Part shown: positions 4,230 to 37,011 of the stretch, one piece after another
Position numbering within the stretch: position 1 is the stretch's first letter
Layout: each line of letters opens with the position of its first letter
Origin: a virus
Virus record (IMG/VR): IMGVR_UViG_3300020187_000087
Span: 1 to 37,011 of that record
DNA: 37,011 nucleotides
Strand: one strand, 5' to 3'
Position numbers and translations under genes: made by a program
Notes under the pieces: generated by a model
Database searches by the model: none
Seen by the model: only the letters and a program-made list of their open reading frames with translations
Told to the model about the DNA's origin: nothing

Positions 4230-4237
4230 TTATAGCC
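4143..4237 (+). repeat. 95-bp exact repeat of the window's right end
   Basis: These 95 bases are identical to 36917-37011. They cover the last codons of fibre 1, its stop, and 8 bases beyond. They form the 3' end of a longer gap-free similarity (3837-4237 against 36611-37011). Confidence 0.95.
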
Positions 4238-6554: not shown

Positions 6555-6555
6555 A

Positions 6556-10964: not shown

Positions 10965-11219
10965 TTGAAATACCAAACAAAGACGGAAGCAAAAAAAGCT
11001 CTGGTGGTCCGATTGCCTGCCGGTGTCAAAGCCCGATTAGATATCTTTTCCCAATCGCAGGGGATATCACAAAGCCGGTTGGCTTCTGAGCTGATATCGG
11101 AAGGGTTGCCCACCACATCCATCGCAGCAAGCACCGCCGCACGGGCTTCGGCGCGCAGCGGTGTTGTGATCGAAGACGATGACAAGTCGGACGTCACAGA
11201 CTGGCTGAAACGGATATGA
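10965..11219 (+). CDS. Ribbon-helix-helix (CopG/Arc-like) regulator
   Basis: 84 residues; TTG start at 10965 preceded by AAAGGAAAG. No ATG exists in this frame. Residues 11-48 (KALVVRLPAGVKARLDIFSQ, then SQGISQSRLASELISEGL) are a typical ribbon-helix-helix: one beta strand and two helices that pair to bind operators. Residues 49-65 are a Ser/Ala-rich linker and the end is acidic (DDDKSDVTDW). It starts divergently from the leftward operon and probably represses it, itself or both. ATGA overlap with rusA. Confidence 0.7.
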   Translation: MKYQTKTEAKKALVVRLPAGVKARLDIFSQSQGISQSRLASELISEGLPTTSIAASTAARASARSGVVIEDDDKSDVTDWLKRI

Positions 11220-11632
11220 CCACCACTTACATTTGGCTCCCTGGTCAACCAATCGGAAAGGGGCGGCCCAGGTTCACCAAAACGGGCAGGGTCTACACTC
11301 CAGAGAAAACGCGCCGGTATGAGCATCGGCTGGCCGGTACTGCATCAAATTACATGATGTTGCACCAGCTCGAACCAACAGCAGGGCCATGCCAGATGGT
11401 AATCAAGGCGCAGTTTGATATCCCTAAGAGCTGGACAAAGGCAAAGAAGGCGGCGGCTGAGGCTTATGAGATATTACCCGGCAAGCCTGACATCGACAAT
11501 ATCGCCAAGATCGTTTTGGATAGCTTCAACGGCGTGGTCTTCGAGGATGATGCCCAGGTGTACGATCTAAAAGTTGTCAAAACTTATGGAGATCCATGTT
11601 TGTTGACAGAGGTCACTTGCTGGAAGTGGTAA
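11216..11632 (+). CDS. rusA: RusA-family Holliday junction resolvase
   Basis: 138 residues. Begins with LPGQPIGKGRPRFTKTGRVY and has the catalytic block KPDIDNIAKIVLDSF followed by GVVFEDDAQV: Asp92, Asp94 and Asp111/112 correspond to the metal-binding aspartates of RusA. The enzyme cuts four-way junctions in pairs, resolving recombination and replication intermediates before packaging. It fits with the annealing-type protein and Gp157 on the other strand. ATGA overlap with the RHH gene suggests co-expression. Confidence 0.92.
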   Translation: MTTTYIWLPGQPIGKGRPRFTKTGRVYTPEKTRRYEHRLAGTASNYMMLHQLEPTAGPCQMVIKAQFDIPKSWTKAKKAAAEAYEILPGKPDIDNIAKIVLDSFNGVVFEDDAQVYDLKVVKTYGDPCLLTEVTCWKW

Positions 11633-16334: not shown

Positions 16335-16813
16335 TGGCTTTAGTGCAGCTCCCCCAGGTAAGAATGGGCCACGACGAGCACATTGTGCCTCTAAGCTATG
16401 AGCATCTTGCCAGGATACGGCTCAAGAAAGAAAACCGTGACTTCGTAAACGTGATACCAAACTATCTGGATTACGTCTGGGATCACGCAGTAGATGGTAT
16501 GAGCTGGGCAGGTATAGGCAGGGGCAAGGTTATCTCTGCATTTGGTATTAGGCCATTCTGGGACGGTGTTGCAGAAATGTGGCTTATACCTGGAGAGGAG
16601 ATAGACCGCCATGCGATATCGGTTATACGAGCTTCTAAACAACTAACCGATACCGCAATAGCTAATAATGGCATAAAAAGACTACAGATCTGCGTAAATA
16701 GCGATAACGATACCGCATTTAGGTTTGCCAAGGCACTACGTTTCGAGGTAGAAAGTATTATGAGAAAGTACGGACCGGATGGGTCTGACTACTACATGAT
16801 GGTGAGGTTTTAA
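16334..16813 (+). CDS. T7 gp13-like / GNAT-fold protein
   Basis: 159 residues. Regions such as YVWDHAVDGMSWAGIGRGKV, AFGIRPFWDGVAEMWLIPGE and RLQICVNSDNDTAFRFAKAL follow the acetyltransferase-like fold of the T7 gp13 family (formerly DUF2833). In T7 this protein is needed for virion assembly and is not known to acetylate anything. The C-terminal AKALRFEVESIMRKYGPDG resembles the GNAT acceptor-end helix. In marine podoviruses this gene often lies between terminase and portal genes, as here. Start overlaps TerL stop by one base. Confidence 0.75.
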   Translation: MALVQLPQVRMGHDEHIVPLSYEHLARIRLKKENRDFVNVIPNYLDYVWDHAVDGMSWAGIGRGKVISAFGIRPFWDGVAEMWLIPGEEIDRHAISVIRASKQLTDTAIANNGIKRLQICVNSDNDTAFRFAKALRFEVESIMRKYGPDGSDYYMMVRF

Positions 16814-22349: not shown

Positions 22350-24548
22350 ATGCGGATTATGCAGTTCCAAACCAATTTCTCGGTTGGTGAGCTTGATCCG
22401 CTTATCCGCGCTCGTACCGACTTGCAGCAATATCAGAATGCTCTTGAGGAAGCTACGAATGTAATCATTCAGCCGCAGGGTGGGTTCAAGCGCCGGGATG
22501 GTATGAAGTTCATCTATGACTTTGGTTCAAGCTTTACTGACTTTAAGGTAATCCCTTTTGAGTTTAGCGTTGATGATAGCTACCTCTTGGTATTTGTCAC
22601 CCAACGGATCTACGTCTTTAAGGCTGGAGTTTTGCAAACCAATATTAATGGCTCTGGCAATGACTACATTACCGCAACTGATATAACCACGGCGATGCTG
22701 GACAACATTAACTATACCCAGGCGGTTGATACACTTATCCTTTGCCATGAGGATCTTCAGACTAAGAGACTTGTGCGAAACGGTGACACAAGTTGGACGT
22801 TGGAGAATCTGCCTCTGACAAACCTTCCTCAGTATGCTTATGCCTTTGACACGCATCAGCCAGACTTTACGATCACGCCCAGCGCCACAACTGGAAACAT
22901 TACGATCACAGCTTCGTCAATGACTACTGACAACGGTACGGCACAGGCTGGAAGCTCAAACACGATTACTCTCAAGGCAGCAACAAGCTACACCGCTGAC
23001 GATCAACCAAACGGTATGTTTATTACTTTAACTTCTGGTACTGGATCTGGACAGACGCGGCACGTTGAGGACTATGTAGCTTCCACCAAGGTTCTGACTG
23101 TCTATCCCGCATGGGATACTGCTCCCGATAACACTACTGGCTATAAGGTTTCTGCATTTGCAGAGGCCGCTGTCGGTGAATACGCTCAAGTCACAAGCAC
23201 TTTTGGTCGCGCTCGGTATGTAGAGTATGTTTCTGACACGGTAATGAAGGCCGTTACGGAGGTTGATTTCTTTGACACCGATGCTGTTACTGCTGGTTTC
23301 TGGGAAAGCGAACATGGTTACGAAGATGTTTGGTCCAGCACTCGCGGTTGGCCCAGGTCAGCTGCATTCCATGAGGGCCGGTTGTATTTTGGTGGATCTA
23401 AGTCTCGGCCAAATACTATCTGGGGTTCTGGTGTAATCAATTACTTTGATTTCAACGCCGGTACTGGACTTGAAGATGAGAGCGTTGAGGCAACAATCAA
23501 CACTAATCAGCTCAATACTATCGTCAACTTGTTCTCTGGCAACGACTTTCGGATCTTCACAACCGGTGGTGAGTTTGTAATCCTGCAAGGAGCCAATGAT
23601 CCAATCACACCTTCGAACTTCTTTGTCAGGCCACAGACACGGCTAGGAGCAAAGTCTGGTATTCCGATTGAAGAGCTAAACGGCGCGTCAATCTTTATTC
23701 AGCGCCAAGGTAAATCTATCAACGTCTTCCAGTTTGGCGATACTACAGCATCTTATCAGGTACAGAACATATCGGCATTAAGCTCTCACTTGCTCAAGAA
23801 CCCTGTGGATATGGCGGCGCGTAGGGCTGCATCTACAGATGAATCGGATCGCCTGTTTGTGGTCAACGGCACTGACGGATCGATGGCGGTTTACTCTATC
23901 TTGGTCGGTCAGAATGTTATTGCACCAAGCCGGTTCACAACAGACGGTGAGTTTATAGCGGTGGGTGTCGAGGTTGCAGATGTTTATGTAATCGTTAAAC
24001 GGACTATTGATGGCACTGACAACTATATGCTGGAGAAGTTTGACCCAGATCTTACGCTAGATAGCGCTAAGGAGGGCGGAGCGGCGTCCTCAGTGACGTT
24101 ACAGCATCTTGAGGGAGAGACAGTCCAGATCATTAGAGATGGCATCATAGAGCCAGAGCAGACGGTACCTGGCTCTCCCTACACGGTTACGTTTGCTTTG
24201 GCGGCTACGTCTAGCTACCAGGTTGGTTTGAATTACACAGTCACGGCTAGAACGATGCCTGCGGAGCCGGTGCTATCTTCTGGATCTGTGCAGGGCTTTA
24301 AAAAGCGTATTATCCAAGTTGATGCTATTGTGAATAGCACCAAGGACATGACGATTAACGGAAAGCAGGTCTCGTTTAGGAACTTTGGCGAGGATGTACT
24401 TGATTCACCGGTTGAGCCTTTCACTGGCATAAAAACTATGCACGGTTTGCTGGGATATAGCGGAACGGGGCAGATTACGATCAGCCAGAATGTTCCATTG
24501 GAAATGATTGTTCTCGGTCTTGAGTACCGTTTAAGCGTGGGGAATTGA
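22350..24548 (+). CDS. Tail tubular protein B (T7 gp12-like nozzle)
   Basis: 732 residues, near T7 gp12 size. Begins MRIMQFQTNFSVGELDPLIR, ARTDLQQYQNALEEATNVII, QPQGGFKRRDGMKFIYDFG, the highly conserved entry of this family. Later VWSSTRGWPRSAAFHEGRLY, FGGSKSRPNTIWGSG, GGEFVILQG and PQTRLGAKSGIPIEELNG. It forms the hexameric nozzle to which fibres attach. Two consecutive genes of T7 type here confirm podovirus morphology. Confidence 0.95.
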   Translation: MRIMQFQTNFSVGELDPLIRARTDLQQYQNALEEATNVIIQPQGGFKRRDGMKFIYDFGSSFTDFKVIPFEFSVDDSYLLVFVTQRIYVFKAGVLQTNINGSGNDYITATDITTAMLDNINYTQAVDTLILCHEDLQTKRLVRNGDTSWTLENLPLTNLPQYAYAFDTHQPDFTITPSATTGNITITASSMTTDNGTAQAGSSNTITLKAATSYTADDQPNGMFITLTSGTGSGQTRHVEDYVASTKVLTVYPAWDTAPDNTTGYKVSAFAEAAVGEYAQVTSTFGRARYVEYVSDTVMKAVTEVDFFDTDAVTAGFWESEHGYEDVWSSTRGWPRSAAFHEGRLYFGGSKSRPNTIWGSGVINYFDFNAGTGLEDESVEATINTNQLNTIVNLFSGNDFRIFTTGGEFVILQGANDPITPSNFFVRPQTRLGAKSGIPIEELNGASIFIQRQGKSINVFQFGDTTASYQVQNISALSSHLLKNPVDMAARRAASTDESDRLFVVNGTDGSMAVYSILVGQNVIAPSRFTTDGEFIAVGVEVADVYVIVKRTIDGTDNYMLEKFDPDLTLDSAKEGGAASSVTLQHLEGETVQIIRDGIIEPEQTVPGSPYTVTFALAATSSYQVGLNYTVTARTMPAEPVLSSGSVQGFKKRIIQVDAIVNSTKDMTINGKQVSFRNFGEDVLDSPVEPFTGIKTMHGLLGYSGTGQITISQNVPLEMIVLGLEYRLSVGN

Positions 24549-24549
24549 T

Positions 24550-25005
24550 ATGGCTGGTTTAATGGCAACAGGTGGTTTCCAGTTATTTTCAGCAGGAGTT
24601 TCAGCTCTTGGTCAAATTTCTGCGGGGGCTGCTCAAAAGCGTCAATACCAAATGCAAGCAGAGCAAGCAGAGCTTCGTGGCCGTTCTGAGGCCATTGCCT
24701 ATAAGCAAAAGGGTGCAGATGCTTTGCGCAATTTAAATGAAACGCTTGCTGCAATTATATCTCGATCTGCTGCGGGTGGTGTTGATCCTACCTCTGGATC
24801 TGCTGCAACGCTTCAGCAATATGCTTTATCTGAGGGCGCTAGAGAGAAACAAATTGCTCAAGACAACGCTATTATGGCTCTCGGCCAGGCAAGCACTCAG
24901 GCTGGAATTTATCAATCCGCTGGACGCGCAGCGCAGTTATCGTCTTATGTATCCGCCGCCGGTACTCTCGGCCAAGGTGCATATCGGTACGGACAATTAG
25001 CATAG
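24550..25005 (+). CDS. Internal virion protein, gp14-like (151 aa)
   Basis: Begins MAGLMATGGFQLFSAGVSAL and continues with a Gln/Ala-rich helix (AAQKRQYQMQAEQAELRGRS) and RSAAGGVDPTSGSAATLQQY. The hydrophobic start, helical Ala/Gln-rich body and SGS-x-A-T/L block are typical of small ejected proteins of podoviruses, which help to build the channel through the cell envelope. The ATG begins one base after the nozzle stop. Confidence 0.75.
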   Translation: MAGLMATGGFQLFSAGVSALGQISAGAAQKRQYQMQAEQAELRGRSEAIAYKQKGADALRNLNETLAAIISRSAAGGVDPTSGSAATLQQYALSEGAREKQIAQDNAIMALGQASTQAGIYQSAGRAAQLSSYVSAAGTLGQGAYRYGQLA

Positions 25006-25013
25006 GTTAGAAC

Positions 25014-27557
25014 ATGGCAATCCTTCCAAGATATCAGCGCACCGGTCTACAGACCCGTCAACCACAACAGATGGATTTTGCCGCTACGCGCGAACAGGCA
25101 AGGTTGGGCCAGACTATTTCTCAGCAAGTTGATCGTATGTCCGACTTTGCTTTCAGGCAGGCTTCTCAGGCAGCGGAAATCCGTGGGCAGGAGCGTGTGC
25201 GCGAAGAAGGTGCTTTGCCTACCCTGGCCGCATTAGATGAAGCCGGTGGACCTACTACAATAGCGGAACGTGCAGCATATGCTCTCGGCAGTCGCGTGGC
25301 TGTTTCTGAGATACAGAACGAAGCTGAAATCGAGATCATGCGGATCTTGAACGATGCTGAAAGAAATGAAACTCCATTCACCGCTGTTCAGGCGCAACTT
25401 GCAGATGTGACGGATGGATATTCGGCTTCACTCAGCACATTAGACCCAGAATCGGCATTGCTCTTGAAGGAACGGCTTTCCGGTTCATCTATCAAAGCTT
25501 CCGAAAGATATTCTAATTGGTATGTTAATCTGCAAGCCGCAAAGGCCAAGGCAAAAATAAACGATGCTGCGGATCGTCAGCTTGAAGTTATTTTGCAAGA
25601 GGCAATTATTCCTGGAGCAAACAAGAGAACTATAGAGCAGTCATTGGCTTCTTCTTCTGAATTGCTTTCAGGATTGGGCGCTTCCGAAAAAGAACTAAAA
25701 GCTTTTGAGAAAATGGCTTATAGCGCTGCCTTTAAGGAAAATGCGCTTTACAAATTCAATGTAGGTTCTCTTGATGAGAAGGCCCGTTTTCTTGAGCAAA
25801 TGAAGACAAAGCCTATGCCGGGAATGTCTCTTGAGCAAACACAATCTTTTAGGAAATCACTTACAGCAGATTACAATGCTCAGGTTAGAGTGACGCAGGG
25901 CGAGGCTGCTGCAATTGTTTCTGATGCAAATGAGCAAGCTCGGATCTTAGCCTTGGGCGGTATGCCATCTCAAAAGCAAGTGTTAACATTAATGGAACGA
26001 GCTGAAGCCGCTGGAGAATACGGCGTTGGCGCTAGGGATGCTGTCGGCGTCCTTCAGTTCAACATGGAAAAAGCTGAAGCATTTAGGAAAATGACTCCAG
26101 AAGATCTGGCCGCAGAGGTGCAATCTTTACGTCAGGGTCTTGAGGGCATTGGCGAAGCTGGCATTGATACTCTTCTAGAAGCTAACACATTAAACGTAGC
26201 CGAGGCATATTTAAGTTCAGCTCAACAGGCTATGGCAAAGGCCGAAACAGCTCGTAAAAAAGAGTATGAACCTATTGTTAATGAATTAACAGAACAGGTT
26301 AATAATTTTCAAGCTTTGGTGGATTCCGGTCGAGATGTAGAAACCAGTGATATTGCCGATCTAATGGAGGCGATAGCTACTGTACCAATAGATTTAAGGG
26401 GCGATCTTCCAGATGAAGTAATAGCCTTAAACATTACAAGTAATACTGTTGAAGCCATAAGGGGAATGACACCGCCAGAGGCCGCTGGATATCTGAGATC
26501 TCTTGAAGGTGGCATTGAGAGTTTTGGCGGAGAGGGTGTTGATACCCCTGTAGAAATTCAAACATATGACTTGGCAAAAAAGATGCTGTCAGGAATGGAG
26601 GCTGAACTAAAGAAAGATCCATTGTCATATGCTATGCGTGTTGGTCTTACTGATTCCAACGGTAATGAAATTGAAATCACGCCGATTAACTTTACAGATC
26701 CAGATGCAACTTTGGAAACAATGAGAAAGCGGATTGATGATGCAACAATTGTTTCTGCTAAGTATTCAACGCCGGTTACATACTTTACGCCACAAGAAAG
26801 ATCTATGCTGGCAGAAGTAATCGATGGATCTGATCGATCACAGAAAATGTTTTTCTTGGGTGCTATTGTAGATGGTGGCGGTCAAGCTGCCCCAGATATG
26901 CTTGCAGAAATATCTAAGACTGCTCCAGAGTTTGCCGGTGTTGGCGCTTTGGTTGTAAGTGAAAGAATGGATGCGGCTAACATGGCATTGCGCGGCATGG
27001 ACTCAATAAAGGCCGGGTTTAAGCCTATAGACTTCACGCCTTCTAATACTGATATACTGTTCAATGCTAAAACAAGTGAGGCTCTTCGCTATCAGCCAAA
27101 TGCAATTGGCATTACTCGTGATGTTGCTACATCTATCTATGCAGACATGGCCAGAAACAAAAAAGCGTTTGATGAAGATCTTTGGAATAATGCAATTGAC
27201 ATGGCTCTTGGAGCTGATGGTTTTGGCCGTGGTGGCATTCAAGAGGTTCGTGGTGTTAATACATACTTGCCGCCAGAATTAAATGTGAATGACATCGAGG
27301 TGGCCTTAAAGGCAATTACACCGGAAAGTCTTTCTGTCGCCTCTGGTGGCCAAGTTCTTACAGATGAGTATGCAACAGACATTTCTGGTCGTGGAATGTT
27401 TAGTAGGGACAATAACTATAAGCCAGTATCATATGGTGGTAATAATTTCATTTTAGCATATGGTGATCCTAGCATTGGTCAGCCAATATATGTTTTTGAT
27501 GAAGCCGGTGAGTTGCTTGTCTTTGATATGTTAAAGCTAGTTGAGGCCACTAAATGA
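25014..27557 (+). CDS. Internal virion (ejection) protein, gp15-like position (847 aa)
   Basis: Begins MAILPRYQRTGLQTRQPQQM and is mostly charged helices with long Ala/Glu/Lys stretches (AKAKINDAADRQLEVILQEA). No enzymatic motif was found. Its size and position between the gp14-like protein and the next large proteins match internal core proteins of T7-like phages, which are ejected first and form a conduit for DNA. ATGA overlap with the next gene. Sequence similarity to T7 gp15 is not obvious by eye. Confidence 0.75.
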   Translation: MAILPRYQRTGLQTRQPQQMDFAATREQARLGQTISQQVDRMSDFAFRQASQAAEIRGQERVREEGALPTLAALDEAGGPTTIAERAAYALGSRVAVSEIQNEAEIEIMRILNDAERNETPFTAVQAQLADVTDGYSASLSTLDPESALLLKERLSGSSIKASERYSNWYVNLQAAKAKAKINDAADRQLEVILQEAIIPGANKRTIEQSLASSSELLSGLGASEKELKAFEKMAYSAAFKENALYKFNVGSLDEKARFLEQMKTKPMPGMSLEQTQSFRKSLTADYNAQVRVTQGEAAAIVSDANEQARILALGGMPSQKQVLTLMERAEAAGEYGVGARDAVGVLQFNMEKAEAFRKMTPEDLAAEVQSLRQGLEGIGEAGIDTLLEANTLNVAEAYLSSAQQAMAKAETARKKEYEPIVNELTEQVNNFQALVDSGRDVETSDIADLMEAIATVPIDLRGDLPDEVIALNITSNTVEAIRGMTPPEAAGYLRSLEGGIESFGGEGVDTPVEIQTYDLAKKMLSGMEAELKKDPLSYAMRVGLTDSNGNEIEITPINFTDPDATLETMRKRIDDATIVSAKYSTPVTYFTPQERSMLAEVIDGSDRSQKMFFLGAIVDGGGQAAPDMLAEISKTAPEFAGVGALVVSERMDAANMALRGMDSIKAGFKPIDFTPSNTDILFNAKTSEALRYQPNAIGITRDVATSIYADMARNKKAFDEDLWNNAIDMALGADGFGRGGIQEVRGVNTYLPPELNVNDIEVALKAITPESLSVASGGQVLTDEYATDISGRGMFSRDNNYKPVSYGGNNFILAYGDPSIGQPIYVFDEAGELLVFDMLKLVEATK

Positions 27558-30500
27558 ACTTTGACCAGCCAGATAGATTAGACGTTCTTCCCCAGCAGGG
27601 TCTTACCGCCCCGCCTGGTACGTTAGCAGAAAATCTGACGACTGCATTTGATGTTGCTCGTTTCAATGGCGGGTCTGGCAGCAACAGTAAAGCGTTTACA
27701 ATGCTTGAGATATGGGGTCCGATTGTAGATCTTGCCAACGAGAATGGCGGAGATTTTGAAAACCCTGGTATGTATCTCGCTGGAAGTCTGTTTGATGCAA
27801 GTTCTCCTCGCCTTTATGAAAAGGTATCTCAGGATATTTATTCTTGGATGGCGCAAAACAAAGATACTCTTCCGCCAGAGTTGCAAGATATAACTCCTGA
27901 TGTAATAAATCAGCGCACAAAGGATTTCGTTCAATCCAAAGAAAATGAATTAGCAGAGCTGGCAAGAACAAATCCCGACTTAGCTAGTGCTGCTGCTCGT
28001 TTTATCGGCTCTATGGGCACTGCTTTTGGCGATCCAGTAACTCAAGCGACTATGCCGTTTGGTGGATGGTCTAAATCTCTTTGGAAGAATGTAATGCAGA
28101 ACGCCGCAATAAATGCCGGTGCTGGTGCAATCACTGAGGTTGATGTTAAAAAATGGTATGATGAGCTTGGCTTTGAATATGGCTATGATGACTTTTTAAA
28201 GAATGTAGCCATTCAAGGCGCATTCGGCGCAGCATTGCCTGTGGCTGGTCGCGGCATACAGATGACCGCAGCTCAAGTCAAGAAGGGCATACAGATGACC
28301 TCAGCTCAAGCCAAGAAGGGCTGGGAAGTATTGTCGGGAAAAGGCCGCAAGCCTATTAGCCCAGAGGATCAAGCCCTGGTTGATGTCCTTGAAGCACAAG
28401 AAGAAGTAGTTGCTACTAATCCCCTAGAAACGCCTCAAGATCCTAATGTGGCAGAGTTTGAGCATCAGAGCCGCTTAACTAAGGCTCAGGCTGCAATAGA
28501 AAACAATATGGCTCCTAATATAACTCCAGAGCCTAACGCCCCTGTAAAGCCTGCTGTCGAAGCCCAGGCCGCAGATAATCTTGATGGTGTTCTATATACA
28601 TTAGATCCAGAACAAATTGAGGTTGACGCCAAGACATTCCAGTTCAAAGCGGGTGGTGATGAGTTTGGCGTAACGGAGCGTCTTCAAGGCGTAACTGTAT
28701 GGGATAAATACAAAGCCGGTATGGTGACAGTGTATGAGTACGCTGATGGTCGTTTAGCAATTGCCGATGGACATCAACGGTTAGGGTTAGCCAAGCGTAT
28801 TCGGTCTCAAGATCCTTCTCAGGAAGTAAAGATAATTGGATACAAGCTGCGCGAAGTTGATGGCGTCAGCCCAGAGGAAGCGCGTGTTATCGCCGCAATG
28901 AAGAACATTGCAGAAGGTACTGGTACATCAATTGATGCAGCTAAGGTGTTGCGTGTTGAGCCTGGTAGATTGTCGGAGCTGCCGCCACGGTCTGAGCTTG
29001 TACGTCAGGCTAGGGACATGATGGCTCTTAGCGATCAAGCATTTGGCGCTATTATTAATGAAGTAATCCCAGCAAACTATGGCGCCATTGTTGGCAGATT
29101 AATTGATGATCCTAACCTTCAAGATGCTGCTATTCAGGTCTTGGCTAAGTCTGAACCTAGCAACGCCTTCCAGGCAGAATCAATTGTGCGCCAGGTGCGT
29201 GAGGCTGGAGCTGAAGAGGTAGAGCAAATATCTCTATTTGGTGAAGAGCTGGTAACTGAAAGCTATTATGTGGAACGTGCAAAGGTCTTAGATCGAGCAT
29301 ATAAAGAACTGCGCCGTGACAAGGCAGCATTTGAAACATTGGTTCGTAACTCGGAACGCCTGGAAGCAGAAGGCAACGTCTTAGTTAAGGAAGCAAACGA
29401 AAGAAAGGCGAATACAGATGGCCAAACGATCGCGCTCCTCCAAACGCTTGCAAACAGAAAAGGGCCGCTCTCCGATGCCCTCAACCAAGCAGCAAGAACA
29501 GCCAGAGACACAAACAGCTATGTCGAAGCAACCAGAGGCTTCCTCGATGCTGTCAGAGGATCAATTGAATCGGGCGACTTCGACCGCATATCTTCTGGCG
29601 ACATTGGACGCGCTGTCGATGGTACGCCGCAGATCAGCAGATCTGAGATTGAAAGAGAGCCAGCCCTTGAGGGATTCGACGAGCCAACTGGGATAGCATC
29701 AGAACGTCAGGCCGATCAACTTATTGATGATATGTTTGGCTCTGATGAGGTAGACGTTGATTCTGTTGCTGGCCTCAAGCGATTGCTTGATGAAAGCCCG
29801 ACAAGAGATCAGATAGAAAACCATCCGTCTGTAATTAAAGCGCTAGATGATATGGAGGCCCGTCCAGAAACTATAGGTCTGGAAGGCTATAACACAGAAG
29901 CTTGGCATAACTCTCGCGTTTATAAAATAGATGACCAGGACGTTATCTCAACAGCCGAGGCAATGGCTAGATTTGAGCTTGATGCAGAACAATTGGCCTT
30001 TAAGGAGCTGGGCATAGATCCGCAGCCTGTTCTTAGAAATAAAGAGCTTACTATAGTTCTAGGACCGCCAGCTTCCGGTAAAAGCACAATCGCCAATGAA
30101 TTGGCTATAGCAAATAAATCCGCCATTCTCGACAGCGATGAAATCAAGAAGGCACTACCCGAGTATGAAGGCGGCATTGGTGCAGCAGCAACGCACGAAG
30201 AAAGTTCCGATCTGGCAAAGATATTACAGTCATTGATGATTGAGCAGGGCACTAATATCGTTTTGCCAAAAGTAGGCCATACCGCCTCTAGTATTCGCAA
30301 AGTAATATCACTATATAAAGATAAGGGGTATAAAGTCCGTATTGTAAATATGGATGTAACTCCAGAAAACGCATTTCAACGTATGATTAGGCGTTTCGTT
30401 TCTTCTGGCAGAATTATTCCACCGGTATATCTTGATCGGGTCGGATCTAATCCATCTGCTACATACAGAACATTAAAACAGGAGGGCGTAGCTGATGGCT

Positions 30501-30877
30501 ATGCAGAAATTGACAACAACGGTGGATTCAATGATCCCAAAGAAATCAAAGATATCTCAGGAGACAACCCGTTATTCGGATCTAGCTTCGATGTACCTGC
30601 GGGTGGAAGAACAGGACCAGACGCTATCAGACGCGCAGAGCGCGATAGTGCAGAATATTCTCTCGAAGAAACGCAGCCGTCCCCAGACGGAGGAATAGCT
30701 GACGATATAAATACATCTGACATCTTTGATGACATGGATCTTGAGGTTCCTTTAGGTGAGCGGATAGATCCCGAAACTGGTGATGTTCTCCCGGCGACTA
30801 TGACGCTGCGAGATTTGAAGGCACAAATGGATCAAGAAGATGCCATGATTAACCGCTTGGAGTTCTGCACGATATGA
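27554..30877 (+). CDS. Large polyvalent virion protein: ParB-like and zeta-kinase-like domains
   Basis: 1107 residues. Residues 1-220 are helical. Residues about 345-480 resemble a ParB-like nuclease domain: LDPEQIEVDAKTFQFK, then ADGRLAIADGHQRLGLAKRI, with the conserved DGHQR near residue 405, and EEARVIAAMKNIAEGTGTS. ISLFGEEL (about 557) resembles a motif of phage polyvalent proteins. Residues about 830-1000 form a zeta-toxin-like P-loop kinase: TIVLGPPASGKSTIANELAI (P-loop 837-845), AILDSDEIKKALPEYEGG, then RIVNMDVTPENAFQRMIRRF. It lies among ejection-protein genes with ATGA overlaps both sides, so entry into the cell with the DNA is likely. Activity unproven. Confidence 0.75.
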   Translation: MNFDQPDRLDVLPQQGLTAPPGTLAENLTTAFDVARFNGGSGSNSKAFTMLEIWGPIVDLANENGGDFENPGMYLAGSLFDASSPRLYEKVSQDIYSWMAQNKDTLPPELQDITPDVINQRTKDFVQSKENELAELARTNPDLASAAARFIGSMGTAFGDPVTQATMPFGGWSKSLWKNVMQNAAINAGAGAITEVDVKKWYDELGFEYGYDDFLKNVAIQGAFGAALPVAGRGIQMTAAQVKKGIQMTSAQAKKGWEVLSGKGRKPISPEDQALVDVLEAQEEVVATNPLETPQDPNVAEFEHQSRLTKAQAAIENNMAPNITPEPNAPVKPAVEAQAADNLDGVLYTLDPEQIEVDAKTFQFKAGGDEFGVTERLQGVTVWDKYKAGMVTVYEYADGRLAIADGHQRLGLAKRIRSQDPSQEVKIIGYKLREVDGVSPEEARVIAAMKNIAEGTGTSIDAAKVLRVEPGRLSELPPRSELVRQARDMMALSDQAFGAIINEVIPANYGAIVGRLIDDPNLQDAAIQVLAKSEPSNAFQAESIVRQVREAGAEEVEQISLFGEELVTESYYVERAKVLDRAYKELRRDKAAFETLVRNSERLEAEGNVLVKEANERKANTDGQTIALLQTLANRKGPLSDALNQAARTARDTNSYVEATRGFLDAVRGSIESGDFDRISSGDIGRAVDGTPQISRSEIEREPALEGFDEPTGIASERQADQLIDDMFGSDEVDVDSVAGLKRLLDESPTRDQIENHPSVIKALDDMEARPETIGLEGYNTEAWHNSRVYKIDDQDVISTAEAMARFELDAEQLAFKELGIDPQPVLRNKELTIVLGPPASGKSTIANELAIANKSAILDSDEIKKALPEYEGGIGAAATHEESSDLAKILQSLMIEQGTNIVLPKVGHTASSIRKVISLYKDKGYKVRIVNMDVTPENAFQRMIRRFVSSGRIIPPVYLDRVGSNPSATYRTLKQEGVADGYAEIDNNGGFNDPKEIKDISGDNPLFGSSFDVPAGGRTGPDAIRRAERDSAEYSLEETQPSPDGGIADDINTSDIFDDMDLEVPLGERIDPETGDVLPATMTLRDLKAQMDQEDAMINRLEFCTI
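28253..28318 (+). repeat. 33-bp tandem duplication
   Basis: 28253-28285 and 28286-28318 are adjacent copies with two mismatches, encoding GIQMTAAQVKK and GIQMTSAQAKK inside the polyvalent protein. A recent in-frame slippage event extending a helix is the simplest reading. Confidence 0.9.
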
Positions 30878-33336
30878 CTTTTAAAAACTGTATCAATGAA
30901 GGCGTTGCAGAAGGCCAAATCACTCAGGAACAAGCTGACGAGATTACTGGCCTGTTTGATGAGCTTGAGGTTCAATACAATCGGCAAATGGGTGGAGCTG
31001 CTGCAACGGCGAAGGCTGCATCTGAAACATCTGTCGCAGCAAAGAAGATTGCTATTGAGCGAAAGCGCCGAGCTATGCTCCAGGCTACAACCTGGAAGAA
31101 GATTAACTACGATCTTCAGAATTACAAAACCGCTTTAGGTGCTCCTGACAAGAATAGAGCGGCCTTGGCTTTGTTTGAGCAAGATCAGACATCCAGGTTC
31201 CGAAGCATTGTCCAGGTGCAACAAGCTGTTCAGCGCAGCGCTACTCGAAAGATGGATGAGTTCTTGGCAACATTTCGCCGCAACATTGTCGGTGAAACAA
31301 GAAACAAGGCCCAATTGAATAATGTAGTTCGTGAAATCTTTGGCGAAGAAACCGGCGATGCTTCAGCTGGAGAAATGGCACAAGCCTGGAAATCTGCATC
31401 TGAATATCTGCGCACAAGATTTAATGCTGCCGGTGGCGCTATTGCTAAACGCTTTGATTGGGGTATGCCTCAGATCCACGATACTATGCGGGTTCGCCAA
31501 TCTACATATGAGGAATGGCGGGACTTCATTAAGGCACGTTTAGATCTGACTAAGATGAAAGACGAGCAAACAGGATTGCCGTTTTCAGATGGTAAGCTTG
31601 AGTTTGCTTTAAAGGATGCTTACGAGACGATCCGCACGGATGGTTTTAATAAGGTTAAGCCAGGAACGATGACCGGCAACAAGTCGTTTGCCATGCGCAA
31701 TCAAGACCATCGTTTCTTTGTTTTTGAAACAGCAGATGGCTGGCTAGAGTATCAACAAAAATTTGGCAATCCAAACCCCTTTGATGCAATGATGGGGCAT
31801 ATTGATATGATGTCACGCGATATTGCTATGATGGAAGTTCTTGGCCCTAATCCAAAGGCAACGACTAATTTCATTAAGCAGACATTGCAGAAAGATGCTG
31901 CTGGAGATGCAAATGCCGAGCGTATAGCTAGACGTACCGGCGCTTCTGTTGATGCTCTTTATTCAGCGGTCAGTGGGTCTATAAACGCTCCTGTTGACAG
32001 CAAGTTTGCATACACATTTGCTGGCATTCGTCAGGTGCTACAGTCGGCGCAGCTTGGCGGCGCGGCTATTGCTGCTACAACAGATATGAATTTCGGGCGC
32101 ATTGCTAGATCTATGGTTGGTCTACCGCAAACCAAGATGCTGAAAAAGTATTTAGATTTTATGACCCCTTTGAGCCTAGAGGAAAAAGGTCGCCTAGCTA
32201 TTCGTTTGGGCTTAACTGCTGAGGGCTGGTCAACTCTCGCTGCTGCACAGATGCGATATGTTGGAGATCTGTCGGGTCCAGAAGTAACGCGCCGTATGGC
32301 CGACTTTGTTATGAGGGCTTCTTTGCTTTCTCCTTGGACAAATGCAGGTCGGTGGTCTTTCGGCATGGAGTTCTTAGGCAATCTAGCTGACAACTCTGGC
32401 AAGCAGTTCGATCAGCTAGATCCAATAATGCAGAAAACTCTCGATCATTATGGCATTGGGGCTGATAAGTGGGAGATTGTAAGAACAACCCCGCTCTATG
32501 AATATGAGGGCGCTTCGTTCCTAAGAGCTGAAGACATCGAGGCCCGTACCGATATACGCTCAGATTTAGCCCGTGATTTAGCAACCAATCTTTTAGCTAT
32601 GGTTGAGACTGAAACCAATTTTGCCGTGCCTAGCAGCTCTCTCCGTGGCCGTACTGCGCTAACAGGTGACACTCAACCAGGCACAATTGCCGGTGAGCTT
32701 ACTCGGTCGTTTGCAATGTATAAGAATTTTGGTGTTACTCTGGTAAATACTCACATCATGCGTGGCTTGGCACAGCCAACACAAAGGGCAAAGGGTACTT
32801 ACTTTGCAGATCTTTTAATCAGCACTACGTTGATGGGCGCTCTGGCAATGCAGCTAAAGGAAATGGCTAAGGGCCGTGATCCCCGTCCAATGGAAAGTCC
32901 TGAGTTCTGGGGCGCTGCTCTTCTCCAAGGTGGTGGCCTTGGCATCTATGGCGACTTCTTATTCTCGGATGTAAACCGTTATGACAGGGGCTTGTCTGAA
33001 ACCATTGCCGGTCCTGTTGTTGGATTTGCTGATGATGTTCGCAAGCTAACGATCGGCAATGTAACTCAGGCCATCAAGGGTGAAGACACAAACATAGGCA
33101 GTGAGCTTATTAACTTTGCCGGTCGATATACTCCAGGATCTACGCTCTGGTACTCTCGTTTAGCACTGGAAAGAATGGTGCTGGATCAAGGCAAGCTATG
33201 GGCAGATCCAGACGCTAAAAGCAAAATGAAGCGCTTGGAATCCAAGTATAAACGCGAATATGGACAAAACTACTGGTGGCGTCCTGGTAAAACCACGCCA
33301 CAAAGGCCCCCAGAACTATCAAACGTGTTTGAGTAA
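30874..33336 (+). CDS. Internal virion (core) protein, gp16 C-terminal-like position (820 aa)
   Basis: Begins MTFKNCINEGVAEGQITQEQ. Helical head; then WGMPQIHDTMRVRQSTYEEW, a central region with FGNPNPFDAMMGHIDMMSRD and IAMMEVLGPNPKATTNF, VLQSAQLGGAAIAATTDMNF, hydrophobic helices near LISTTLMGALAMQLKEMAKG and GGGLGIYGDFLFSDVNRYDR, ending WWRPGKTTPQRPP. This block order is a conserved large inner-core protein of marine podoviruses and phages with split gp16-like genes. The amphipathic segments may insert in the host inner membrane during ejection. ATGA overlap with the polyvalent gene. Confidence 0.8.
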   Translation: MTFKNCINEGVAEGQITQEQADEITGLFDELEVQYNRQMGGAAATAKAASETSVAAKKIAIERKRRAMLQATTWKKINYDLQNYKTALGAPDKNRAALALFEQDQTSRFRSIVQVQQAVQRSATRKMDEFLATFRRNIVGETRNKAQLNNVVREIFGEETGDASAGEMAQAWKSASEYLRTRFNAAGGAIAKRFDWGMPQIHDTMRVRQSTYEEWRDFIKARLDLTKMKDEQTGLPFSDGKLEFALKDAYETIRTDGFNKVKPGTMTGNKSFAMRNQDHRFFVFETADGWLEYQQKFGNPNPFDAMMGHIDMMSRDIAMMEVLGPNPKATTNFIKQTLQKDAAGDANAERIARRTGASVDALYSAVSGSINAPVDSKFAYTFAGIRQVLQSAQLGGAAIAATTDMNFGRIARSMVGLPQTKMLKKYLDFMTPLSLEEKGRLAIRLGLTAEGWSTLAAAQMRYVGDLSGPEVTRRMADFVMRASLLSPWTNAGRWSFGMEFLGNLADNSGKQFDQLDPIMQKTLDHYGIGADKWEIVRTTPLYEYEGASFLRAEDIEARTDIRSDLARDLATNLLAMVETETNFAVPSSSLRGRTALTGDTQPGTIAGELTRSFAMYKNFGVTLVNTHIMRGLAQPTQRAKGTYFADLLISTTLMGALAMQLKEMAKGRDPRPMESPEFWGAALLQGGGLGIYGDFLFSDVNRYDRGLSETIAGPVVGFADDVRKLTIGNVTQAIKGEDTNIGSELINFAGRYTPGSTLWYSRLALERMVLDQGKLWADPDAKSKMKRLESKYKREYGQNYWWRPGKTTPQRPPELSNVFE

Positions 33337-33382
33337 ATGGAACTAATCTGCTATAGAGTGAACAAAGGAACGGGAAAACGAC

Positions 33383-36300
33383 ATGAGTGATATCGCAATT
33401 AATCCAGTAACCCGCCGGGTTCAGTTCACAGGCAATACCGGAACCGGTCCATATGCCTTTACCTTCAACATCTTGGTCGATGGTGATATCGCAGTCTTCA
33501 AGGGGACTACGGAGCTAACGCTTACCACTGATTACACGGTCAGTATTAACGCAAATGGAACGGGGTCTATCACTCTAACTGCTGCCCTCATAGCATCTGA
33601 CGTTCTTACAATCATTGGTGGTCGTGAGCTTTCTCGGACCACAGACTTTGTTACAGCCGGGGATCTTCTGGCTTCTAGCTTGAACGAACAGCTAGACAGT
33701 AACGTGATTATGACCCAACAGCTTGATGAAAAGCTTGGGCGTGGTTTGTTTGTAAACCCTGGTGATGTGTTTACTGACTTAGAGCTTCCACTCAAGGATG
33801 ATCGTAAGGGTACGGTGCTTGGATTCAATGAGACCACGGGCGACCCAGAGCCAGGTCCAACACTTTCGGATGTCGATTCACTAGCAACTATTTCTGCTGA
33901 TATTAAGACTTTGGCAGAGATCCAAGATGGCACGGTTGCCACTGATGCCATTACAAACGTAAATACGATCCGTACAGATGTAACCACAGTTTCCGGCATA
34001 TCTTCCAATGTAACTACGGTTGCAGGCAATACATCAAACATTAATACGGTTGCAGGAAACAATGCCAACATTACAACTGTTGCTGGCATAGATAGCGATG
34101 TAACTACTGTTTCGGGTATATCTTCCGATGTGACCACCGTTGCTGCTGACGGTACAGACATTGGAGTTGTTGCAGGTATATCTTCTGATGTGACTACTGT
34201 TTCCGGCGTATCGACAGAGATTGGCCGCTTGGGTACAGCCGATGCTGTATCTGATATGAACGTACTAAGCGCTCCGGCAGTTATTGCTGACATGGATTCT
34301 CTTGCTGACAATGTTAGTGCGATTTCTATTGTATCAGATGATATTGGTAATGTTATTGCTGTTGCTGTAAACGCAGCCAACATCAATACGGTTGCCGCTG
34401 ATGGCGCCGACATTGGCACGGTGGCTGGTGATATATCTAACGTCAATACGGTTGCGACTAATATTACGTCAGTAAACACAAACGCCACAAACATTACTGA
34501 TATCCAGAATGCTTCTGCAAATGCTGCTACTGCAACAACGCAAGCCGGAATTGCAACAACACAGGCTGGCATAGCAACGACTAAAGCTAGTGAGGCGTCT
34601 GCCTCTGAGGTTGCGGCTGAAGCTGCTAAGGTTGCGGCTGAGGCTGCGCTTGATGAGTTTACAGACATCTATCTCGGGGCTAAGGCTTCAGATCCCACAA
34701 CAGATAATGATGGGAATGCCCTGACTGCTGGGGACCAGTATTTTAATACAACCCTTAATGTGCTGAAGATCTACAACGGTTCTGCTTGGCAGTCTGCTGC
34801 TATTGATAGCTCCGGTTTTGTTGAAACCACTGGCGACACCATGACTGGTAATCTGTCCTTCGGCGACAACGACAAGGCCATCTTTGGTGCTGGCAGTGAT
34901 TTGCAAATTTATCACGATGGTAGCAATAGCCGTATTCAAGACACAGCCACGGGTTCATTGATACTTTCTGGTACAAACTTTTACGTCAACAATACTGGAG
35001 ACAGTAAAAGTTATATTGCTGGTCTTGACGGCGGTACAACGCCTTATGTTCGCTTGTACTACGATGGATCAACTCGTTTAGACACCACCTCCACAGGTAT
35101 TGACGTAACTGGCACAGTGACGGCTGATGGGCTGACTGTGGATTTAACTTCTGGGTATGCAAGAATACAAGATTTGAACTCCGAAGTTGTGTCTGGCACA
35201 AATATGGGTGGCATTGAGTGGAGAACTGCAGACTCAAGTGTTAGCGGGGCAAACCGCATTACAGCAAGGATTAGGGCGGAGGGAGATGGCACCTTTAACG
35301 CCACAGACAAAGCTCCCACAAAGTTAATTTTCTCAACTCATACAACGTCGGGTGCTGATCCTGTAGATCGCATGGTTATTGCTTCTAACGGCGACATCAG
35401 CTTCTACGATTCACAGGGCAGCAGCCAATCGTTCTTCTGGGATGCGAGTGCGGAGAGCTTGGGTATTGGGACCAGTTCGCCTGATGATGCTTTGCATGTT
35501 TATAACACTTCCAGTTTAAATCATGTTCGCATTGACGGGCCTGCTGGTATTAACCGAAACTTAAACTTTAGTACGTCAGGTACAACCCGATGGAATATTT
35601 ATGCAAACTCTACGGCAGAAAGCGGCTCTGATTCTGGCTCCAACTTAACTATTGCAAAATACACTGATGCTGGAGTTTATAATGGCGTTGCAATGTTTAT
35701 TGAACGTAGCAGCGGATCGGTAGGCATTGGGACGAGTTCGCCTGCGGACCCACTGCATGTTTACACTAGCGACGCTGGTGTGGCACGGTTGGAAAGCACC
35801 TCCGCAAACTCATACCTTCGCTTTATTACATCTGCCGACACTAATGGCTATGTGGGATATGAGAGCAACGACATGGTAATCTACGCTAATAACAGCAAGG
35901 TTGCCACATTTGACTCATCGGGCAACGTGGGGATTGGGGTTACGCCCAGTGCTTGGGACACCCTGCCTGCTATTCAGGTAAGCACTTACGGTGGGTTGTC
36001 TGCTGGTGGTGGCTACACAAGGCTGTCCTCAAATGCTTATTTAAGTACCTACCCAAACACTTGGTCACGTATTGCTACAAATACTGCAAGTTTGTATGAG
36101 CAAGGTGGAGGTCAGCATGTTTGGTCTACTGCTGCATCTGGTAGTGCTGGCACAGCAATTAGCTTTAGTGAAGCCATGCGCATCGACTCATCGGGCAACC
36201 TGCTTGTGGGGACTACGGACTCTGCGCCGGGGGCTGGAGATACCAATACTGGAGTTAGCTTTAGGGCTGGAGGTGACGGCTTTTTCTCAAAAGACTCAAG

Positions 36301-37003
36301 CTATGGCGCTCGTTTCAACAGAAATACAAATGACGGAGACGTAGTAACTTTTGCAAAAAACGGCACCACGGTGGGGAGTATTGGGACTTATTCAAACGAT
36401 GTGTATATAGGTAATGATGATGTAGGGTTGCTGTTTAACAACGCATCCAACTATATGTCACCGCACAACGTAAATACAAACTTACCTACAGATGGAGCGA
36501 TGGACATAGGCGCAGGGTCACGCCGCTTCAAAGACCTCTACCTCTCTGGCGGTGTCGTCTTTGGCGATGCTGGCGGCTCAGGTACGTCCACAAGCAACAC
36601 GCTGGATTCGTATGAGGAGGGGACTTTTACTCCTACGGCCTTTGGAACTACCGCCGCTGGGACCACTACCTATGCAGCCCAAACTGGGTCTTACACCAAA
36701 GTTGGCGATACGGTTCATGTAGACATTTATATTTCTTGGAGTGCTATGACTGGTACTGGCGATTTAAGAATAGGTGGTTTGCCATTCACGTCTTCTAGCG
36801 CATCTAATTATTTTGCTACTGGCACTATTGTTCCTTTGCTAGGCTTTACTTGGCCTTCTGGAAAAACCCAGCTAAATCCAATTATGAGCGCTAGTGACAC
36901 AGCTATGAATATTTACGGCTCGGCTACTGATTCAAACTCAGACGGAGCAGCAACGGATAATGAAATAGTCGCTCTTGCAATAACGATAACTTATAAGGTT
37001 TGA
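33383..37003 (+). CDS. Tail fibre protein 2, T7 gp17-type N-terminus
   Basis: 1206 residues. Residues 1-150 (INPVTRRVQFTGNTGTGPYA, then GRELSRTTDFVTAGDLLASS, LNEQLDSNVIMTQQLDEKLG) are the T7 gp17 N-terminal domain that binds the tail. Residues 200-280 are perfect decad repeats of VTTVSGISSD type, continuing loosely to about 375, then an Ala-rich coiled coil (residues 376-424). The shaft has the FGDNDKAIFGAGSDLQIYHDG block and SSGNVGIG modules shared with fibre 1, and the last 130 residues match fibre 1 with nine differences. Likely the main host-binding fibre. GGAACGGG lies upstream of the ATG. Confidence 0.93.
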   Translation: MSDIAINPVTRRVQFTGNTGTGPYAFTFNILVDGDIAVFKGTTELTLTTDYTVSINANGTGSITLTAALIASDVLTIIGGRELSRTTDFVTAGDLLASSLNEQLDSNVIMTQQLDEKLGRGLFVNPGDVFTDLELPLKDDRKGTVLGFNETTGDPEPGPTLSDVDSLATISADIKTLAEIQDGTVATDAITNVNTIRTDVTTVSGISSNVTTVAGNTSNINTVAGNNANITTVAGIDSDVTTVSGISSDVTTVAADGTDIGVVAGISSDVTTVSGVSTEIGRLGTADAVSDMNVLSAPAVIADMDSLADNVSAISIVSDDIGNVIAVAVNAANINTVAADGADIGTVAGDISNVNTVATNITSVNTNATNITDIQNASANAATATTQAGIATTQAGIATTKASEASASEVAAEAAKVAAEAALDEFTDIYLGAKASDPTTDNDGNALTAGDQYFNTTLNVLKIYNGSAWQSAAIDSSGFVETTGDTMTGNLSFGDNDKAIFGAGSDLQIYHDGSNSRIQDTATGSLILSGTNFYVNNTGDSKSYIAGLDGGTTPYVRLYYDGSTRLDTTSTGIDVTGTVTADGLTVDLTSGYARIQDLNSEVVSGTNMGGIEWRTADSSVSGANRITARIRAEGDGTFNATDKAPTKLIFSTHTTSGADPVDRMVIASNGDISFYDSQGSSQSFFWDASAESLGIGTSSPDDALHVYNTSSLNHVRIDGPAGINRNLNFSTSGTTRWNIYANSTAESGSDSGSNLTIAKYTDAGVYNGVAMFIERSSGSVGIGTSSPADPLHVYTSDAGVARLESTSANSYLRFITSADTNGYVGYESNDMVIYANNSKVATFDSSGNVGIGVTPSAWDTLPAIQVSTYGGLSAGGGYTRLSSNAYLSTYPNTWSRIATNTASLYEQGGGQHVWSTAASGSAGTAISFSEAMRIDSSGNLLVGTTDSAPGAGDTNTGVSFRAGGDGFFSKDSSYGARFNRNTNDGDVVTFAKNGTTVGSIGTYSNDVYIGNDDVGLLFNNASNYMSPHNVNTNLPTDGAMDIGAGSRRFKDLYLSGGVVFGDAGGSGTSTSNTLDSYEEGTFTPTAFGTTAAGTTTYAAQTGSYTKVGDTVHVDIYISWSAMTGTGDLRIGGLPFTSSSASNYFATGTIVPLLGFTWPSGKTQLNPIMSASDTAMNIYGSATDSNSDGAATDNEIVALAITITYKV
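33980..34222 (+). repeat. 30-bp (decad) coding repeats in fibre 2
   Basis: Eight consecutive 10-residue units of consensus (V/I)TTV(S/A)GxxS(D/N), encoded by about 30-bp repeats, residues 200-280 of the fibre. Likely a trimeric beta or coiled shaft segment whose copy number sets its length. Confidence 0.85.
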
Positions 37004-37011
37004 TTATAGCC
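36917..37011 (+). repeat. 95-bp exact repeat at right edge
   Basis: Identical to 4143-4237; the window stops inside this repeat, 8 bases after the fibre 2 stop codon. A wider gap-free similarity covers 36611-37011. Confidence 0.95.

What the first reader, a model, noticed from the sequence alone, without database searches (positions are those of the whole stretch)
27554..30877. Probable ejected protein with ParB-like and zeta-toxin-like kinase domains
A 1107-residue protein in the ejection-protein cluster carries a DGHQR-type ParB-like region (about 345-480) and a P-loop kinase region (GPPASGKST at 837-845) with zeta-toxin features. Multi-domain polyvalent proteins of phages and conjugative elements with such domains have been described as effectors delivered with DNA. 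Here the arrangement suggests nuclease and kinase activities entering the host at infection. Zeta kinases phosphorylate UDP-activated amino sugars, so envelope precursor metabolism is a possible target.
Basis: partly seen in the sequence, partly recalled or inferred. Interest (0 to 1): 0.75.

Follow-up and report, generated by a model that had tools for sequence, protein, structure and literature searches.

The report
Swappable enzyme cassette in ejection protein
In the gene position where short-tailed phages of this kind encode a protein shot into the host with the DNA, this phage has a slot holding a toxin-like kinase that near-identical relatives have replaced with a different toxin-like enzyme, which suggests an interchangeable effector delivered at infection.

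Summary
Residues 777-1005 match zeta/PezT kinases by structure (Z 16.6); a ParB/Noc-like fold upstream has weaker support. Gene order matches phage epsilon15, with this ORF in the gp16 slot, so ejection is likely but not shown. Against its closest swap partner, flanking DNA is 96-99% identical while the core does not align. Alternatives are a Tas1-like alarmone-synthetase domain (profile E 5e-20), a diverged domain tentatively like it, or no cassette. Of 80 distinct complete relatives, 35 have the kinase, 27 the synthetase, 8 the diverged form, 10 neither. The kinase keeps its catalytic residues in 20 of 20 aligned sequences and shows purifying selection, but lacks residues that hold UDP-N-acetylglucosamine in zeta toxins (Thr118 is Val907), so the envelope-precursor target is not supported. 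Best reading: a polyvalent-type ejection protein with a swappable nucleotide-chemistry effector. The domains and general idea are in print (Iyer 2017); the cassette-swapping site in a podovirus ejection gene is a new variant. Virion presence, delivery, activity and substrate are untested.

The parts
27554..30877 (+). Whole ORF P0001, 1107 aa, in the epsilon15 gp16 position; overlaps the genes before and after by 4 nt (ATGA at 27554-27557 and 30874-30877)
27554..28555 (+). N-terminal helical region, aa 1-334, conserved in close relatives; presumed virion/ejection scaffold (inferred)
28586..28993 (+). ParB/Srx-like domain, aa 345-480; DGHQR at aa 405-409 (28766-28780)
28994..29743 (+). Helical continuation of the module, aa 481-730; its first part resembles the ParB/Noc DNA-binding helices (inferred from Noc/ParB rows)
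29749..30724 (+). Exchangeable cassette (about aa 733-1057): aligned DNA stops at 29748 and resumes at 30725 against L011 and L008
29882..30568 (+). Zeta-like kinase fold, aa 777-1005
30062..30088 (+). P-loop GPPASGKST, aa 837-845 (Lys843 equals zeta Lys46)
30131..30139 (+). DSD, aa 860-862; Asp862 equals the zeta catalytic base Asp67
30266..30280 (+). PKVGH, aa 905-909, in place of the zeta EGTGR loop that binds UNAG (Thr118 to Val907, Arg120 to His909)
30725..30874 (+). Conserved C-terminal tail, aa 1058-1107, ending RLEFCTI; kept whichever cassette precedes it in close relatives
24550..25005 (+). gp14-like internal virion protein (phrog_418)
25014..27557 (+). gp15-like ejection protein (SPN1S_0017 E 3.7e-9; epsilon15 gp15 only E 0.033)
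30874..33336 (+). gp17-like virion structural protein (phrog_684 E 4.7e-184; epsilon15 gp17 E 8.7e-64)

Best explanation
P0001 is the gp16-position ejection protein of an epsilon15-like podovirus that doubles as a delivery chassis. Its N-terminal region, ParB-like module and C-terminal tail form a constant frame. Between module and tail is a cassette site that in this phage holds a zeta-superfamily kinase. Proposed working: the protein is packaged in the head, ejected ahead of or with the DNA, and its cassette reaches the cytoplasm, where the kinase uses ATP (Lys843, Asp862, Arg947) to phosphorylate a small molecule and alters or arrests host metabolism early in infection. The substrate is probably not UDP-GlcNAc; an adenine nucleotide or NAD-like molecule (as for AvrRxo1) is the better guess. 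Relatives deliver a Tas1-like alarmone/(p)ppApp-synthetase-type domain from the same site, so the common theme would be disturbance of nucleotide pools or signals. Shown here: kinase fold and conserved active site, gene position, in-frame cassette exchange, purifying selection. Inferred: packaging, delivery, catalytic activity, substrate, benefit to the phage.
For: Zeta_toxin Pfam E 5.6e-18; AlphaFold model vs zeta 1gvn Z 16.6 over 200 residues at 2.9 A, PezT 15.1, AvrRxo1 14.5; Lys843, Asp860, Asp862, Arg943, Arg947 in 20 of 20 aligned kinases; dN/dS 0.084-0.108 in the cassette in 7 comparisons. Cassette exchange: window vs L011 97.6% and 95.9% identity up to 29748, nothing aligned to 30724, then 98.7%; zeta vs RelSpo in L029/L030 and presence vs absence of about 700 bp in L039/L038; at least 17 changes of cassette class on an N-terminal tree of 61 rows, minimum possible 3. 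Alternative cassette is Tas1-like: profile E 5.3e-20, Foldseek top row 6ox6 Tas1 E 7.1e-8. Synteny with epsilon15 gp11-gp17. The module occurs beside other polyvalent-protein domains in other phages and genome contigs.
Against: No virion proteomics and no assay. P0001 has no detectable sequence similarity to epsilon15 gp16 or SPN1S_0018; its tail resembles theirs only weakly (hhalign probability 40). No strong transmembrane segment by hydropathy (best 19-residue mean 1.15). No adjacent antitoxin or immunity gene. Four of six UNAG-related zeta features were not examined; the two main contacts are absent. Relatives without either cassette exist (10 of 80 distinct), so the cassette is not needed for viability everywhere. 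The ParB assignment rests on low TM-scores.
Confidence: 0.6

Rival explanations
1. Counter-defence effector: the cassette enzymes modify or destroy nucleotide signals or cofactors used by host anti-phage systems, rather than harming the host; swapping follows the defences met.
For: Both cassettes are of fold families that act on nucleotides. A BFVD relative of the model is named 'Anti-CBASS protein Acb1' (A0A6J5LTH6, 403 columns, E 4.6e-10); the name was not verified and its domains were not examined. Fast exchange at one site fits an arms race.
Against: Zeta and Tas1-type domains are known as toxins (passages in PMC3062530 and PMC12226406); no evidence here ties either cassette to a defence system.
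Confidence: 0.22
2. Nucleic-acid kinase: the cassette is a polynucleotide or tRNA-end kinase that repairs or modifies nucleic acid at entry.
For: Polynucleotide kinases follow in the structure list (4gp7 Z 13.4, Pnkp1 11.4) and in the profile list (Pnkp1 E 1.8e-6); phrog_505 polynucleotide kinase E 2.6e-7; the UNAG loop is not kept.
Against: Zeta and PezT score higher in structure (16.6, 15.1) and the match extends N-terminally to residue 777; Pfam names Zeta_toxin well above cut-off; no ligase or phosphatase partner domain was seen in the ORF.
Confidence: 0.1
3. Purely structural ejection protein: the cassette is an inherited passenger or spacer without enzymatic role.
For: Length varies and some relatives lack either cassette.
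Against: Catalytic residues invariant in 20 of 20; dN/dS about 0.09; replacement is by another enzyme-type fold, not by random filler.
Confidence: 0.05

Closest known systems
Polyvalent proteins of phages and conjugative elements (Iyer et al. 2017, PMC5512222; sections 15 and 22 and passages read)
   Same: Large multidomain proteins near virion genes combining a ParB-like domain with effector-type domains; the paper lists zeta-toxin-like kinases (fused to MuF in phages) and RelA/SpoT domains among them, predicts injection, and describes extensive mosaicism in Helicobacter prophage proteins.
   Different: P0001 has no LPD or metallopeptidase by Pfam, is in an epsilon15-like gp16 position, and shows a single exchange site with two main alternative enzymes flanked by a constant tail.
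MuF polymorphic toxins, Apk2 (PMC12226406, passages)
   Same: Phage head protein with exchangeable toxic domain; one domain is a RelA/SpoT-fold (p)ppApp synthetase like the alternative cassette here.
   Different: Different carrier (no MuF in P0001), cassette internal rather than C-terminal, no adjacent immunity gene.
Halovirus HCTV-5 gp114, annotated 'zeta toxin and ParB nuclease domain protein'
   Same: A viral head-region protein joining zeta and ParB domains.
   Different: Zeta lies first (aa 145-317) and my ParB profile gives only an 18-position match of 7.9 bits, so the fusion looks independent; archaeal virus.
Epsilon15/SPN1S gp16-position ejection protein
   Same: Same place between gp15- and gp17-like genes.
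   Different: No detectable sequence match; about half the length (634 and 600 aa); no kinase or ParB annotated.
Zeta/PezT UNAG kinases and AvrRxo1
   Same: Fold and catalytic residues.
   Different: UNAG contacts not kept; no antitoxin; like AvrRxo1, which keeps ATP-binding but not UNAG-binding residues and phosphorylates NAD (passages in PMC5087710).

Membership tests
Polyvalent proteins | Two or more domains of disparate function in one phage or plasmid polypeptide | tested here: met
   Zeta-type kinase plus ParB-like module; the ParB part is the weaker of the two
Polyvalent proteins | Encoded with late/virion genes, consistent with injection | tested here: met
   Between gp15- and gp17-like genes with 4-nt overlaps
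Polyvalent proteins | Part of the shared domain network (LPD, ART, MuF, PBECR, RelA/SpoT and so on) | tested here: met
   Not in P0001 itself but in carriers of the same module: LPD38 in Ruegeria phage 45A6 and L119, LPD23 in L107, LPD5 and LPD1 in L134, ART-PolyVal in L120, MuF_C in L119, PBECR1 in L130 and L136 (13 of the 28 genome-contig proteins were given to Pfam)
Polyvalent proteins | Packaged and delivered into the host | not testable with these tools
   needs virion mass spectrometry and a delivery assay
Zeta/PezT UNAG kinases | P-loop kinase fold of zeta type | tested here: met
   Z 16.6 to 1gvn, 200 residues, 2.9 A; Pfam E 5.6e-18
Zeta/PezT UNAG kinases | Catalytic residues (zeta Lys46, Asp67) | tested here: met
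   Lys843 and Asp862, 20 of 20
Zeta/PezT UNAG kinases | UNAG contacts Thr118 and Arg120 | tested here: not met
   Val907 (V 18, T 2 of 20) and His909 (H 10, G 7, K 2, Y 1 of 20)
Zeta/PezT UNAG kinases | Cognate antitoxin gene next to it | tested here: not met
   Neighbours overlap the ORF and are gp15- and gp17-like virion genes
ParB/Srx superfamily | Conserved G-x-H-x-R-type motif | tested here: met
   DGHQR invariant in 38 of 38
ParB/Srx superfamily | ParB fold | tested here: inconclusive
   Foldseek Noc E 2.1e-4 and ParB about 8e-3 with low TM-scores and no range; no sequence-profile hit in the PDB; VIA rows were filled by the kinase
DdrB-like ParB (Iyer 2017) | Family-specific residues and extra helix | not tested
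   No ddrB-type Pfam family appeared for P0001 at E<=1, but the specific features were not compared
Epsilon15-like gp16 ejection protein | Gene position | tested here: met
Epsilon15-like gp16 ejection protein | Sequence homology to epsilon15/SPN1S gp16 | tested here: inconclusive
   no blastp or phmmer hit; hhalign probability 0.8 N-terminus, 40 tail
Polymorphic toxins | Constant carrier with exchangeable toxin domain | tested here: met
   here the cassette is internal with a constant tail
Polymorphic toxins | Immunity gene beside the toxin | tested here: not met
   gp17-like gene follows with a 4-nt overlap
Tas1/Apk-type synthetase (alternative cassette in relatives) | Fold and sequence profile of Tas1/alarmone synthetases | tested here: met
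   A2 profile to Tas1 E 5.3e-20; Foldseek 6ox6 E 7.1e-8
Tas1/Apk-type synthetase (diverged form: L008, L011, L034, L035, L042, L043, L097) | Sequence profile | tested here: inconclusive
   12.5-17.9 bits with an independent profile; no alarmone synthetase among PDB matches at E<=10

The most novel reading that the evidence does not exclude
Epsilon15-like podoviruses use the gp16-position ejection protein as a universal carrier with one recombination-driven payload slot, through which populations exchange enzymes that attack or rewrite nucleotide metabolism (zeta-type kinase, Tas1-like synthetase): a phage counterpart of T6SS or polymorphic-toxin effector swapping, delivered by a short tail at the first moment of infection.
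Probability: 0.4. Interest if true: 0.8.

Novelty: new variant of a known kind. Interest (0 to 1): 0.62.

Why it matters
If right, it gives a natural experiment: near-identical phages that differ almost only in the enzyme at one site, including versions without it. That would make it possible to test directly what a first-wave injected effector does for a phage, and it would offer the ejection apparatus of podoviruses as a protein-delivery route whose payload evolution has already explored. It also corrects the default guess that a zeta-like kinase in a phage attacks peptidoglycan precursors.

Tried and rejected
UNAG as substrate: rejected as default because Thr118 and Arg120 are not kept. Direct PDB hit for P0001 by phmmer gave only polyubiquitin at residues 419-457, which I take as chance. 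In the profile search with the kinase alignment, the two best E-values were adenylate kinase 9 and a cilia protein (5.4e-11 and 2.7e-8), but no single stretch of either passed; zeta (2.3e-7), PezT (3.8e-7) and Pnkp1 (1.8e-6) are the best single-stretch matches. ParB chains were not found by profile. The diverged cassette as alarmone synthetase: left open. In one search those diverged forms counted as RelSpo because one of them was in the profile; they are counted apart. Homology to epsilon15 gp16: not shown. The Tas1-like cassette of L040 has no match in the isolate-phage collection at E<=1e-3; the kinase has 25 records. Near-match of the window to isolate phages: only short tail-fibre-region pieces. 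PMC10386132 and PMC12391199 (passages) did not settle whether epsilon15 gp16 is ejected; the review PMC8954989 (passages) says epsilon15 ejects internal virion proteins but lists other gene numbers for it.

Counting choices: one search examined 72 proteins, 60 complete at the 3' end; one search took 118 records complete at both ends, many the same contig from different scans, 80 distinct (59 clusters at 90%); L036 was dropped there and truncated ORFs were left out; one search kept the best 80 of 398 relatives, so frequencies are biased to near relatives. In one search I chose pairs because their classes differ; of 11 distinct pairs the 10 that differ in class break at the cassette and the one same-class pair (L041/L040) does not. 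The tree left out 5'-open rows, L107, L069 and truncated rows without a class; labels are still clustered on it (0 of 200 shuffles as low), so swaps are frequent but not random. Single-linkage clusters mix classes through fragments and were not used for counts.
Full report
Observation. The ORF at 27554-30877 (+) is intact, 1107 aa. The P-loop GPPASGKST is at 837-845 and DGHQR at 405-409. Pfam gives Zeta_toxin at 829-990, E 5.6e-18. PHROGs gives long unnamed or mosaic families over 283-712 (phrog_10691 E 4.1e-67; the end of phrog_21 E 2.9e-24).

Place in the genome. The window is a whole virus record of 37,011 bases. Upstream genes match terminase, head-tail adaptor, major head, and tail tube proteins. 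Compared with phage epsilon15 the order is gp11 (E 5e-13), gp12 (6e-39), gp14-like (phrog_418), gp15-like (SPN1S homologue E 4e-9; epsilon15 gp15 itself only 0.03), P0001, gp17-like (9e-64). P0001 therefore sits in the gp16 slot and overlaps both neighbours by ATGA. It has no detectable sequence similarity to epsilon15 or SPN1S gp16, though Dunaliella viridis virus SI2 has a homologue in the same slot (blastp E 3.5e-70 over 271-770; N-terminus and tail by hhalign, probabilities 96 and 81). A review (PMC8954989, passages) states that epsilon15 ejects internal virion proteins and that gp16-like proteins are highly divergent and mosaic. Ejection of P0001 is thus likely by position, not shown. Hydropathy gives no strong membrane segment.

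Folds. AlphaFold on an alignment of 38 sequences gave mean pLDDT 68, about 82-94 over 741-990 and about 55-85 over 345-480. VIA-align puts zeta toxin first (1gvn, Z 16.6, 200 residues, 2.9 A, model 777-1005), then PezT 15.1, AvrRxo1 14.5, polynucleotide kinase 13.4. Foldseek also lists Noc at E 2.1e-4 and ParB at about 8e-3, which I assign to the DGHQR module. That assignment is inference, and TM-scores are low.

The cassette. Thirteen close relatives in IMG/VR showed that residues 1-730 and the last 50-60 stay the same while the kinase is replaced in L007, L008 and L011. At DNA level the window and L011 are 97.6% identical over 24001-28549 and 95.9% over 28571-29748, do not align over 29749-30724, and are 98.7% identical over 30725-34917. 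L008 has the same two breakpoints; L007 breaks at 29719 and 30836. L029 and L030 (97.4% and 95.9% flanks) exchange kinase for synthetase-type domain; L039 has about 700 bp that L038 lacks, with 92-93% identity on both sides. Ten of ten class-differing pairs compared break at this site; the one same-class pair does not.

What replaces it. The main alternative (A2) folds well (core pLDDT above 90). Its best Foldseek row is Tas1, a type VI effector, E 7.1e-8, and the 36 rows at E<=0.001 are Tas1, small alarmone synthetases, GTP pyrophosphokinases or Rel/RelA (3l9d named as such). A sequence profile reaches Tas1 at E 5.3e-20. Some members carry a second ParB-like DGNST stretch. A diverged third form may be related but is not secured. 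Others have only module plus tail. Counting 80 distinct complete proteins: 35 kinase, 27 synthetase, 8 diverged, 10 neither, the last including L107, which has LPD23, helix-turn-helix and GcrA domains instead. On a tree of the N-terminal region, 61 rows, the four classes need at least 17 changes against a minimum of 3.

Selection and active site. Between the window and seven relatives the kinase cassette shows dN/dS 0.084-0.108, like the rest of the gene. Lys843, Asp860, Asp862, Arg943 and Arg947 are invariant in 20 of 20. Zeta Asp67, the catalytic base, is Asp862. The UNAG contacts Thr118 and Arg120 (passage in PMC3062530) are Val907 and His909; 18 of 20 have Val. AvrRxo1 likewise keeps ATP-binding but not UNAG-binding residues and phosphorylates NAD (passages in PMC5087710). 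I therefore do not accept UDP-amino sugars as the likely target; adenine nucleotides or NAD are a guess by analogy.

Wider family. The ParB-like module is common: 398 stretches in IMG/VR (best 80 kept) and 28 loci in bacterial genome assemblies, many alphaproteobacterial, some of them metagenome bins whose assignment is unsure. Of those 28 proteins, 3 carry the kinase and 6 the synthetase core. Of the 13 given to Pfam, some have PBECR1, ART-PolyVal, MuF_C, LPD or M15 peptidase domains. Ruegeria phage 45A6 has it in a 3912-aa protein with LPD38, helicase, methyltransferase and acetyltransferase domains. This ties P0001 to the polyvalent proteins of Iyer et al. 2017 (PMC5512222; sections 15 and 22 and passages read), who already list zeta-like kinases, RelA/SpoT and ParB domains and predict injection.

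Mechanism. I propose that the constant parts serve packaging, ejection and perhaps contact with the incoming DNA, and the cassette is an enzyme payload. Shown: fold, active site, gene place, exchange, selection. Inferred: packaging, delivery, activity, substrate, advantage. Main rival: counter-defence rather than damage.

Verdict. Observation confirmed, interpretation partly supported, and a stronger finding added: an exchangeable effector site in a podovirus ejection-protein gene. New variant of a known kind.

Noticed in passing
window 3765-4237 and 36523-37010: The C-terminal ends of two tail-fibre-like ORFs (1599-4229 and 33383-37003) share 490 aligned bases at 88.6% identity, with shorter repeats before them; an HNH endonuclease gene (phrog_99) lies at 1098-1598 just before the first.
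   Followed up: partly
window 16334-16813: A small protein matching phrog_4177 and the internal virion protein family phrog_308 lies far from the ejection genes; epsilon15 gp13, annotated as GNAT-like, may be its counterpart, moved.
   Followed up: no
L015 (Dunaliella viridis virus SI2): A record deposited as a virus of a green alga has an epsilon15-like gene order and a P0001 homologue without kinase or synthetase cassette; it is probably a phage of a bacterium in the culture.
   Followed up: partly
L018 (Prochlorococcus phage P-SCSP1c) 6642-14357: An Autographiviridae cyanophage ORF of 2571 aa in the gp16 position carries the same ParB-like module at aa 452-577.
   Followed up: partly
L107 4040-9004: In the same gene position a distant relative has a 1654-aa protein with LPD23, helix-turn-helix and GcrA-like domains.
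   Followed up: partly
L011 near 8963-9261; L010 and others: A variable insert of up to about 80 aa of predicted coiled-coil-like linker lies just before the ParB-like module, a second variable site in the same gene.
   Followed up: no
L130, L136 (Aureimonas contigs): The ParB-like module is followed by a PBECR1 RNase-type domain, another possible payload.
   Followed up: no
window 8757-9242 (-), 11216-11632 (+), 6514-7011 (+): Mu Gam-like end-protection protein, RusA-like resolvase and endolysin; no integrase family appeared among the 29 window ORFs given to PHROGs.
   Followed up: no
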